A stretch of 33,781 bases of DNA. It comes from a virus. The stretch covers positions 1 through 33,781 of IMG/VR virus record IMGVR_UViG_3300013122_000362. The stretch is one strand, 5' to 3'. The stretch's first letter is position 1; every line of letters starts with the position of its first letter. The position numbers were made by a program, and so were the translations under genes. The notes under the pieces were generated by a model. It saw nothing but the letters and a program-made list of their open reading frames with translations. It was not told where the DNA came from and did no database searches. Positions 10,514 through 13,861 of the stretch are shown here, in pieces.

Positions 10514-10531
10514 CTTGTGTGGATGCCGCCC

Positions 10532-10788
10532 GGTCTGCAAGGGAATTTGCTTTCTTCTGTGCATTTGATCGAGTGCGTGCTTGTGTCAGGCCTGAATGTG
10601 CGGCCTTTCACGCGCCGCTGGCCGGTATGGTGATCCGCGGGGCAGGTCCAAATCTGGCGGACGAGCGATAGCTCTGTGTCCTGGACTGGTTTTCCCGACC
10701 CTGATCCTGGCGATCAATTGCCCATGAAGTTTAGCGCCTCTCCTTACATCCCCGACTTACCGGGTTCAGACGATGGACGGTGCGGTAG
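10532..10788 (-). ncRNA. Predicted seekRNA-type guide region of IS-B
   Basis: The 257-bp 3' non-coding part contains CCAGGAC (10678-10684), complementary to the right insertion flank GTCCTGG. It contains CCGCCAG (10654-10660), identical to the left flank plus AG core, and ACACAAG (10580-10586), identical to the IS right tip plus core. The order (right target guide, left target guide, then donor guide) and the shared CAGATT following the left target guide match IS-A. I could not find an exact right-donor guide; CACCAT (10627-10632) is a weak candidate. The transcript ends are unknown. Confidence 0.5.
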
Positions 10789-11820
10789 TCACGCCGCCAT
10801 CAACTGCCCCGGATCCCGATAGTTCTCATTCCGCGTCAGCATCGCCCAGATGCCGCGCGCCATCTTGTTCGCCAAGGCGACGGCTACAAGCATGCGCGGC
10901 TTCGTCGCCAGCATGCGGGCCAGCCATGTTCCGGGGCGGGCGCCCTTTTGGCTCGTCCATCGCACCACGGCCATGGCGCCGATGATCAGCAGCCGTCGGA
11001 TATCCTGCTGGCCCATCTTCGACGTGCGTCCAAGCCTTTGCTTGCCACCAGTCGAATTCTGTCGTGGCACAAGACCAAGCCAGGCAGCAAAGTTGCGGCC
11101 ACAGCCGAAGGTTTCCATGGGCGGCGCGAAGGTCTCAATGGCCAGCGCGCCGATCGGCCCAATGCCCGGCATGGTCTGCAGCCGTCGCGTCGTCTCCGCC
11201 GTCCGCGCGAGTTCGCCGATCCGCTTCATCAGCACGTCGATCCGTGCCGTCTGAGCGGCAATCTGCGAGAGCAGGTCGCGGCACGTCTCGCGTGCAAGCT
11301 GTGGCAGATCGGTCCCATCGTCGTCGAGGATTTCCTCAATCCGGCGAAGCTGGTGTATGCCTTGCGGTGCTACATACCCGAACTCGTACAGGTGAGAACG
11401 CAGGGCGTTCACCAGCTCGGTCCGCTGCTTCACAAGCTGCTCACGGGTCCGGAACACGACCGCTCGGGCCTGTTGCTCGGCGTTCTTGACCTCGACGAAG
11501 CGCATCGACGGCCGGGTTGCCGCCTCGACGATCGCTTCGGCATCAGCCGCATCGTTCTTCTGCCGCTTGATGAACGGTTTCACATAGCGCGCCGAGATCA
11601 GCCGCGTCACGTGACCAAGCCGCGCCAGTTCTCGCGCCCAGTAATGCGCTCCGCCACAAGCTTCCATGACAACCGTGCAACCTGGCTGCTCGGACATGAA
11701 ACGGTGGAATTGTGGTCGGCTGAGCTTCTTGCGGAACAGGACCGTCCCGTCAGCCGCCGCGCCGTGAAGTTGAAAGCTGTGTTTTGCAAGATCGACCCCG
11801 ATGATGATAGCCTTTTCCAT
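10789..11820 (-). CDS. IS110-family (IS1111 group) transposase (IS-B)
   Basis: The 343-residue protein starts MEKAIIIGVDLAKHSFQLHG at the ATG at 11820, after an AGGAGAAGGAGG ribosome-binding site. DEDD residues are visible in IIGVDLAKHSF, VVMEACGGAHYWAREL and QKNDAADAEAIVEAA. The phrase CGGAHYWARELARLGH followed by VKPFIKRQKNDAADAEA is the IS1111-group hallmark. The Transposase_20 domain is LQTMPGIGPIGALAIETFAP, and the C-terminal Ser-containing segment includes PRQNSTGGKQRLGRTSKMGQ. It appears intact. The frame is open upstream into methyltransferase sequence, but that read-through is an accident of insertion. Confidence 0.95.
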   Translation of the reverse strand: MEKAIIIGVDLAKHSFQLHGAAADGTVLFRKKLSRPQFHRFMSEQPGCTVVMEACGGAHYWARELARLGHVTRLISARYVKPFIKRQKNDAADAEAIVEAATRPSMRFVEVKNAEQQARAVVFRTREQLVKQRTELVNALRSHLYEFGYVAPQGIHQLRRIEEILDDDGTDLPQLARETCRDLLSQIAAQTARIDVLMKRIGELARTAETTRRLQTMPGIGPIGALAIETFAPPMETFGCGRNFAAWLGLVPRQNSTGGKQRLGRTSKMGQQDIRRLLIIGAMAVVRWTSQKGARPGTWLARMLATKPRMLVAVALANKMARGIWAMLTRNENYRDPGQLMAA

Positions 11821-11906
11821 GGATGCCTCCTTCTCCTCTCGTGGAACCAAGCACCACGAGCGTGGCACATGGCGCTGCCGTCGAGGAAGGGCGGCATCCA
11901 CCCCAT

Positions 11907-12550
11907 CTGGCGGCCAAGCAGGCCGTTCACCGGCGTGTTGGCGAGGCTCGTCGCCCCGTCCTTGTGATCGCGCGCCGTCGGCGTCATCCACAACCCTGCG
12001 GAATGGGTCAGATCGGCCGTCTTTCGGTTGCCCGCGCTCGGCTTGCAGACATCGTTCGCCATCGGCGTCGGCCAGAGCCGCAGCATCTCCGTCCGGTTGC
12101 CGCCACTCGAGCGGGTCCCGGAGCAGGCGCGCGGGGTCGGCCAACTCGTCGCCCTCGCGGATCGCGAGGATGAACAGCCGCTCGCGCTTGTGGGGAGCGC
12201 CGACTTCCGCCGCCGTGAAGAGGCCTGCCGCAAGGCGGTAGCCCATGCCGACCAGTCCGCAGGCGACTTCGGGAAAACCGAGGCGGAGATGATGGGCGAC
12301 ATTTTCGAGGAAGACGAAGGGCGGCTCGGTCTCGCCGATGACGCGGGCGACATGCGGCCAGAGGTGGCGCGGATCGTCCGCGCCCCGGCGCTTGCCCGCC
12401 ACGGAGAACGGCTGGCACGGATAGCCCGCAGTGACGATGTCCACCGCGCTGCGCCACGGGCGGCCGTCGAAGCTGGCAACGTCGTCCCAGACAGGCGCCC
12501 GATCCAGGGCCGCGTCTTCCATCCGCGCCACGAGGATGGCTGCGGCGAAG
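11907..12550 (-). pseudogene. C5-methyltransferase, fragment 2 of 4 (motifs IV-VIII), frameshifted
   Basis: The first part, in one frame, reads AAAILVARMEDAALDRAPVW, the catalytic motif IV TAGYPCQPFSVAGKRRG, motif VI FVFLENVAHH and motif VIII KRERLFILAIR. The second part continues in another frame with LWPTPMANDVCKPSAGN and WMTPTARDHKDGATSLANTP, then VNGLLGRQ, a run typical of phage Dcm-like proteins. The switch lies at about 12090-12160. The four fragments sum to 1009 nt, which is 336 codons plus one base, consistent with a single inserted base (or loss of two). It is flanked by IS-C upstream and IS-B downstream. Confidence 0.85.
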
Positions 12551-12562
12551 TATCCGTCTTGA

Positions 12563-13495
12563 TCAAGCGGCTTTTGCGTTCCATTTCCGGTCATCGCGCA
12601 GTAAGGCGTTCGCCAGAACGAGCAGCTTTCGCATGATGGCGGTGATGGCGACCTTCGAGGGTTTTCCGGCGTCCTTGAGGGCTTGATACTTCTGCTTCAG
12701 GTCCGGGTTGAAGCGCAGAGCCACGAGGGCAGGCATGTAGAGCGCCGTGCGAAGGCTGCGTCGGCCTCCTCGGATGCGTGCCCGTCCGGACCAGGTTCCG
12801 GACTGGCGCGTCATGGGCGCAAGACCGGCAAGGCTGGCGGCCTGTTTGTTGTCCAGCGTGCCGAGTTCTGGCATCTCGATCAGGATCGCCATGGCCGTCA
12901 GTGTTCCGATGCCGGGAATGGAAGCCAGAACGTCCCGGCGGCGGGACAGGCCGGGATCGGTGTCGACCAGGGTCGCGATCGCGGCATCGATTTCCTTCAG
13001 CTGAATGCCGATCTGCTTCAGGCGGGCGCGCAACTGGCGCTTGATGACGAGGTTCACGGCAATCTGTTCCCGGTTGGTCGCTGCGATGCGGTCCTTGACC
13101 AGAGCCTGCCGGGCGACACCCAACTCCCTGAGATCATGCAGGGTTTCGGTCTTCGCCGGTCGCCCTTCAAGATCGAGCACCGCGCCCATCCGCGCCAGGA
13201 TGGCCGCGTCGATCCGATCGGTCTTGGCCAATTCCCCGGTCGCCTCTGCGAAACGGCGCGAGGATCGGGGATTGACCTTGACCGCCGCGATGCCTGCCGC
13301 GACCAGCGATGCTTCGAAAATCCGGTGGTAGGGGCCGGTCGGTTCGAAGACGACCCTCACGGCTGACGCGCCGATCCAGCGGATCAGGGCAGCGCATCCC
13401 GCCCGATCATTCGGAAATTGCCGATGCTCGCGCGTGCTCAGACGAAAGGCATCAAGAGTGGGTTTCGAGATGTCGACGCCGATGGTATCATCCAT
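12563..13495 (-). CDS. IS110-family transposase (IS-C)
   Basis: The 310-residue protein begins MDDTIGVDISKPTLDAFRLS at 13495, preceded by AGAGGAAGAGG. DEDD residues appear in IGVDISKPTLD, VVFEPTGPYHRIFEA and LAKTDRIDAAILARMG. The C-terminal domain carries DVLASIPGIGTLTAMAILIE and the Ser-bearing PMTRQSGTWSGRARIRGGRR. It is shorter than the IS-A and IS-B proteins and of the IS110 group rather than IS1111. It appears intact and ends 13 bp before the element's right end. Confidence 0.95.
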   Translation of the reverse strand: MDDTIGVDISKPTLDAFRLSTREHRQFPNDRAGCAALIRWIGASAVRVVFEPTGPYHRIFEASLVAAGIAAVKVNPRSSRRFAEATGELAKTDRIDAAILARMGAVLDLEGRPAKTETLHDLRELGVARQALVKDRIAATNREQIAVNLVIKRQLRARLKQIGIQLKEIDAAIATLVDTDPGLSRRRDVLASIPGIGTLTAMAILIEMPELGTLDNKQAASLAGLAPMTRQSGTWSGRARIRGGRRSLRTALYMPALVALRFNPDLKQKYQALKDAGKPSKVAITAIMRKLLVLANALLRDDRKWNAKAA

Positions 13496-13496
13496 T

Positions 13497-13680
13497 GTCT
13501 TTTCCTCTTCCTCTGCTTGTCATCCGGGCCCAGAACCCGGGTATCCGTTCAGGACAGATGAAAAGACGGGGGCGATCACACTACGCCTCGGTGGTGAAGC
13601 ACCTGGTTTCCCTCGATCCGACCCCCGCCGCTGCCCGGCATATATGCCGTGCCAGGCAGCGGCTCCTTTATCGCAAAGGA
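13497..13680 (-). ncRNA. Predicted bridge RNA of IS-C
   Basis: The segment lies between the left IS end and the transposase start, where IS110-group bridge RNAs are encoded. In transcript order: hairpin TCCTTT-GCGAT-AAAGGA (13664-13680); a long stem-loop with 9-bp outer arms GCCGCTGCC/GGCAGCGGC; a GGGGG...CCCCC-closed loop holding GGGAAACC (13605-13612) and GGCGTAG (13581-13587); and a GTCTTTTC/GAAAAGAC-closed loop (13560-13567 with 13497-13504) holding CGGATAC (13541-13547) and GACAAG (13516-13521). These match the left target, the right target (one mismatch), the right IS tip and the left IS tip, each meeting the CT core. Confidence 0.7.
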
Positions 13681-13703
13681 GCCGAGGGAAGTCATAAGAC
13701 AAG

Positions 13704-13861
13704 GTTTCCCGTTCGACATGGCCCACAGCACGATATCCGGGGATGGCGATGGCGAGCCCGAGATCGAGCCCGCCCGCGCCGGAGCAGAGGGAGAGGCCGA
13801 ACAGACATGCGTCTCCGGCTCCGGAAGTGTCTCCGGAGGAAGGTAAAGCCAGGTCATGCAT
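13704..13861 (-). pseudogene. C5-methyltransferase, fragment 1 of 4 (N-terminus, motif I)
   Basis: The ATG at 13861 lies one base past the stop of the ParB-methyltransferase gene (TGACATG). The fragment reads MHDLALPSSGDTSGAGDACL, then FGLSLCSGAGGLDLGLAIAI and PGYRAVGHVERE. SLCSGAGGLDLGL is the S-adenosylmethionine binding motif I of C5-methyltransferases. IS-C interrupts it immediately after VERE. In an intact phage this orphan methyltransferase would protect DNA from host restriction; here it cannot be made. Confidence 0.88.

What the first reader, a model, noticed from the sequence alone, without database searches (positions are those of the whole stretch)
13497..13701. IS-C carries a bridge RNA whose four guides match its present insertion site and its own ends
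In the 5' non-coding end of IS-C, read on the minus strand, GGGAAACC equals the left target plus the first core base. GGCGTAG is complementary (one mismatch) to core plus right target CTTCGCC. CGGATAC equals the right IS end plus the first core base. GACAAG is complementary to core plus left IS end CTTGTC. They occur in the order left target, right target, left donor, right donor, inside two loops closed by GGGGG/CCCCC and GTCTTTTC/GAAAAGAC. This is the layout known for the IS621 bridge RNA, and all four segments meet at the same CT core.
Basis: partly seen in the sequence, partly recalled or inferred. Interest (0 to 1): 0.85.

Follow-up and report, generated by a model that had tools for sequence, protein, structure and literature searches.

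The report
IS110 element with its bridge RNA
A small jumping gene sits in a DNA-methyltransferase gene of what looks like an alphaproteobacterial prophage, and it encodes a guide RNA whose loops match both its landing site and its own ends; relatives show that guides and landing sites change together, so it is a well-supported new example of the known IS110 bridge-RNA system.

Summary
IS-C is an IS110-group insertion sequence (minus strand, 13701-12551, CT core at each end, transposase 12563-13495) that interrupts a C5 cytosine methyltransferase gene of a probable alphaproteobacterial prophage. At least 56 of 80 related methyltransferase genes in viral contigs carry the empty site GGGAAAC-CT-[T/A]CGCC, with a single CT. 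The 206-nt leader folds as the IS621 bridge RNA does. Across 27 relatives, 29 of 37 modelled pairs show double (compensatory) changes (0/500 shuffles). The two target guides follow the flanks of each copy: left guide z=7.2 over 33 non-redundant sites, right guide z=11.1 over 29 sites, 0 of 50,000 permutations for either. The single right-guide mismatch is an allele: the guide fits the common CTACGCC form of the site, and this copy sits in CTTCGCC. Donor guides match the ends but are nearly invariant, so covariation cannot test them. Joining right end to left end creates TTGATC-N17-TATGAC, a sigma-70-like promoter as reported for IS621. This is a new member of a known kind. A modest surprise: the same gene holds a second site hit by a sister lineage with other guides, and also a second, IS1111-type element whose 3' end matches its own insertion site.

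The parts
12551..13701 (-). IS-C, IS110-group insertion sequence, 1151 bp between the two CT cores
   Evidence: absent from uninterrupted methyltransferase homologues with a 2-base overlap; ends TGTCTTATG.. and ..GACGGATA shared by relatives
12563..13495 (-). IS110 transposase/recombinase, 310 aa, DEDD domain plus Transposase_20
   Evidence: PF01548 E 7.6e-22, PF02371 E 3.2e-22
13496..13701 (-). left non-coding end encoding the bridge RNA (206 nt)
   Evidence: MFE -94.6 kcal/mol, z -4.27; 93.2% of cells paired and 29 pairs with double changes over 27 relatives
13606..13614 (-). left target guide GAGGGAAAC (last seven bases match the left target)
   Evidence: matches own left flank 7/7; covaries with flanks over 33 sites
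13581..13587 (-). right target guide GGCGTAG, complementary to CTACGCC (one mismatch to the occupied CTTCGCC)
   Evidence: covaries with right flanks over 29 sites, z 11.1; CTACGCC is a common allele of the empty site
13541..13547 (-). left donor guide CGGATAC = right IS end plus first core base
   Evidence: sequence identity to 12556-12550; invariant in relatives
13516..13521 (-). right donor guide GACAAG, complementary to core plus left IS end CTTGTC
   Evidence: sequence; invariant in nearly all relatives
13702..13703 (-). left copy of the CT core
   Evidence: single CT in the empty site of related genes
12549..12550 (-). right copy of the CT core
   Evidence: as above
13704..13710 (-). left target GGGAAAC
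12544..12548 (-). right target TCGCC
12561..12566 (-). -35-like box TTGATC in the right end; with TATGAC of the left end it forms a promoter in the circular form
   Evidence: joined RE-LE junction TTGATC-N17-TATGAC; the 17-base spacing is found in 28 of 35 relatives

Best explanation
IS-C is an IS110-group element that moves by bridge-RNA-guided recombination. When it excises as a circle, the joined right and left ends form a sigma-70-like promoter (inferred) that transcribes the left end into a roughly 180-nt bridge RNA (inferred). Its first loop pairs with the two strands of a target (GGGAAAC and CT[A/T]CGCC around core CT) and its second loop pairs with the joined element ends (CGGATAC and CTTGTC); the pairing is shown by sequence and, for the target loop, by covariation. 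The DEDD recombinase then joins element and target at the CT core (inferred from IS621). Here the target was the codons for V-E-R-E-T-F-A-A of a C5 cytosine methyltransferase gene, which the insertion splits.
For: Transposase domains. Exact boundaries and single-CT empty site. Target guides covary with flanks: left z 7.2, right z 11.1, 0/50,000 permutations. Structure covariation 0/500 shuffles and lost when the partner is slid by 1-3 columns. Sister elements with guides AATGGG or CATGGG and GCGGTAG sit at ATGGG-CT-ACCGC in the same gene, a site that is empty in this window. Promoter at the RE-LE junction in 28 of 35 relatives. All agree with the published IS621 layout (PMC11208160).
Against: No transcript, RNA binding or recombination was measured. 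Donor guides do not vary, so covariation cannot test them. The left-guide register is not uniform: some relatives fit best one base to either side. Some relatives match poorly (L058, L057, L053), and L053 also lacks a typical right end.
Confidence: 0.95

Rival explanations
1. The leader is only a structured 5' untranslated region that controls transposase expression, and the matches to target and ends are chance.
For: The leader is very stable (z -4.27) and lies directly upstream of the transposase start codon; the right-target match taken alone is likely by chance (P 0.44).
Against: Guide segments track the flanks of each copy over about 30 distinct sites, which a purely regulatory leader would not do.
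Confidence: 0.02
2. The element uses its guide RNA in the shorter, processed form described as seekRNA rather than as a full bridge RNA with two loops.
For: seekRNA was reported for both IS1111 and IS110 types, with the non-coding region upstream of the transposase in the IS110 type (PMC11187229).
Against: The donor loop and its guides are as conserved as the rest of the leader or more so, which suggests that the whole RNA is kept.
Confidence: 0.15
3. The guides match the flanks because guide sequence was copied from an occupied site after insertion, not because the guides chose the site.
For: Copies at the methyltransferase site share nearly the same guides.
Against: L085 and L029 carry the same left guide but sit at other sites that resemble it; relatives L030 and L026 share guides but occupy different sites with the same core motif.
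Confidence: 0.02

Closest known systems
IS621 bridge RNA, IS110 group (Durrant et al. 2024, PMC11208160)
   Same: DEDD recombinase, bridge RNA in the left end, guide order LTG-RTG-LDG-RDG, core CT included in the guides, promoter across the RE-LE junction
   Different: other target (a methyltransferase coding sequence), two strong 5' hairpins before the target loop, right target guide of about 7 nt instead of the 4 nt described for wild-type IS621
seekRNA of ISEc21 and IS1111 elements (Siddiquee et al. 2024, PMC11187229)
   Same: non-coding region upstream of an IS110-type transposase holds segments matching both strands of the target
   Different: described as a shorter RNA; IS1111 members have the non-coding region downstream, the target segments in reversed order and subterminal inverted repeats

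Membership tests
IS110 group of the IS110 family (bridge-RNA elements) | DEDD_Tnp_IS110 plus Transposase_20 recombinase of 300-460 aa | tested here: met
   310 aa, both Pfam domains well above cut-off
IS110 group of the IS110 family (bridge-RNA elements) | long left non-coding end, short right end | tested here: met
   206 nt left, 12 nt right
IS110 group of the IS110 family (bridge-RNA elements) | core dinucleotide at both junctions, single in the empty site | tested here: met
   CT
IS110 group of the IS110 family (bridge-RNA elements) | target guides covary with genomic flanks | tested here: met
   left z 7.2, right z 11.1, 0/50,000; with free register z 9.9-11.0
IS110 group of the IS110 family (bridge-RNA elements) | donor guides pair with the joined element ends | tested here: inconclusive
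   exact match here, but guides and ends are nearly invariant in relatives
IS110 group of the IS110 family (bridge-RNA elements) | conserved two-loop RNA structure | tested here: met
   target loop and hairpins strongly supported; donor-loop stem more weakly
IS110 group of the IS110 family (bridge-RNA elements) | sigma-70-like promoter rebuilt at the RE-LE junction | tested here: met
   sequence only: TTGAYC-N17-TATGAN in most of 35 relatives
IS110 group of the IS110 family (bridge-RNA elements) | transcript, recombinase binding and circular form | not testable with these tools
   needs experiments

The most novel reading that the evidence does not exclude
Separate IS110-family lineages have guides tuned to conserved codons of one prophage cytosine-methyltransferase gene and have inserted there repeatedly, so this gene is a programmed landing pad for elements that travel with phages.
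Probability: 0.35. Interest if true: 0.5.

Novelty: new member of a known kind. Interest (0 to 1): 0.4.

Why it matters
It adds a natural, covariation-supported bridge-RNA clade with about 30 distinct target and guide pairs and a right target guide of about 7 nt, useful for learning targeting rules and for choosing new recombinases to test. The allele mismatch and the off-centre registers are natural data on how much mispairing is tolerated. The clustering of guided sites in one prophage methyltransferase gene raises a testable question about how guides evolve.

Tried and rejected
Rfam search of the window found no family at gathering threshold. A first regex anchor put the guides in the wrong hairpin for many relatives (it still gave z 5.9 and 7.4); replaced by alignment columns. 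A pattern search over 385 genomes gave only 5 hits. Covariation of donor guides could not be tested because they do not vary. A tree of methyltransferase flanks rejects one clade for the site-1 carriers (p 0.005) and needs 6 label changes, but prophage genes recombine, so repeated insertion is favoured and not proven. The rival 'regulatory leader only' was rejected.

Full report
What is there. The window is an IMG/VR virus record of 33,781 bases. On its minus strand an IS110-family transposase ORF lies at 12563-13495 with the DEDD_Tnp_IS110 and Transposase_20 domains. Close relatives (85-95% identical protein) occur in alphaproteobacteria such as Palleronia, Salipiger and Tropicibacter and in viral contigs. 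The host is therefore probably an alphaproteobacterium (inference).

Boundaries. A search for the interrupted gene found at least 592 related C5 cytosine methyltransferase stretches in viral contigs, of which 80 were kept. Aligning the window to uninterrupted copies shows that 13701-12551 is extra, with a two-base overlap of the flanks. The empty site reads TCGAACGGGAAAC-CT-TCGCC in 29 of 80 and -CT-ACGCC in at least 27. The element therefore lies between two CT cores at 13703-13702 and 12550-12549 and splits the codons for V-E-R-E-T-F-A-A. The rest of the gene matches the C5 methylase domain.

The four segments. An ordered set this good did not occur in 20,000 simulated leaders, although the right-target segment alone is unremarkable.

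Guides follow targets. Elements with a recognisable leader were collected from genomes and viral contigs, aligned, and compared with their own and with swapped flanks, using one element per left target. The right guide matches its own right flank at 119 of 145 positions against 48.9 expected (sd 6.35, 29 sites). The left guide matches at 115 of 231 against 65.1 (sd 6.9, 33 sites). No permutation out of 50,000 reached either value. Letting the left register move by one base raises the left signal to z 9.9-11.0. Striking single cases include guide CTGCTTT with flank CTGCTTT (L033), CTCAGGC with CTCAGGC (L044) and CTTTAGC with CTTTAGC (L079).

The mismatch explained. The right guide of this copy is complementary to CTACGCC, while the occupied site reads CTTCGCC. 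Both forms are common alleles of the same gene in related prophages. L080 shows the opposite combination. One mismatch at this position is evidently tolerated, or the allele changed later; the data do not say which.

Fold. The leader folds better than shuffles. Across 27 relatives 93.2% of cells pair, 29 of 37 pairs have changes on both sides, and all five measures beat every one of 500 shuffles; sliding the partners by one column drops pairing to about 45%. The donor-loop outer stem is supported only in part. The donor guides and element ends are almost invariant, so they cannot be tested by covariation.

Promoter. Joining the right and left ends across CT gives TTGATC-N17-TATGAC here, and the same 17-base spacing in 28 of 35 relatives. 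IS621 is reported to express its bridge RNA from such a junction promoter (PMC11208160).

Repeated targeting. A sister lineage (62-65% identical protein: L078, L026, L031, L072) carries other guides and sits at GGCATGGG-CT-ACCGCC, a site about 100 codons further along the same gene that is empty in this window. The six carriers of the IS-C site in the flank tree do not form one clade (p 0.005), and IS-free genes are at least as close to the window's gene as IS-carrying ones. Repeated insertion is the simpler reading, but recombination between prophages could scatter one old insertion.

Verdict. This is an ordinary but unusually well-supported member of the IS110 bridge-RNA elements. Mechanistic steps after base pairing (transcription, recombinase binding, strand exchange) are inferred from IS621.

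Noticed in passing
window 10516-11906, minus strand: A second IS110-family element (IS1111-like) lies in the same methyltransferase gene: transposase ORF ending at 10789, perfect 13-bp subterminal inverted repeats GTGGATGCCGCCC/GGGCGGCATCCAC, and an empty site reading GGCCGCC-AG-GTCCTGG. Its 3' non-coding end holds CCAGGAC (10684-10678) and CCGCCAG (10660-10654), which match the two halves of its own insertion site in the order reported for IS1111 (PMC11187229).
   Followed up: partly
L074, L064, L048, L073 (left junctions): In these relatives the left junction carries AT and the right junction CT, so the two cores differ; the left guide also has A at that position. Possibly insertion into a non-CT core.
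   Followed up: no
L062, L045, L043, L085 (left junctions): The left guide fits best one or two bases away from the usual register, and in three of them the left end starts GTTGTC or CATGTC, which suggests variable left-end joining.
   Followed up: no
L083, L084, L032, L086: Several more distant relatives sit at GATTCC....-CTCTAG-like sites, probably a repeated intergenic element.
   Followed up: no
L022 compared with the window: The 3' end of this element resembles the sister lineage (L026-like right end) while the 5' part resembles the window, suggesting recombination between IS lineages.
   Followed up: partly
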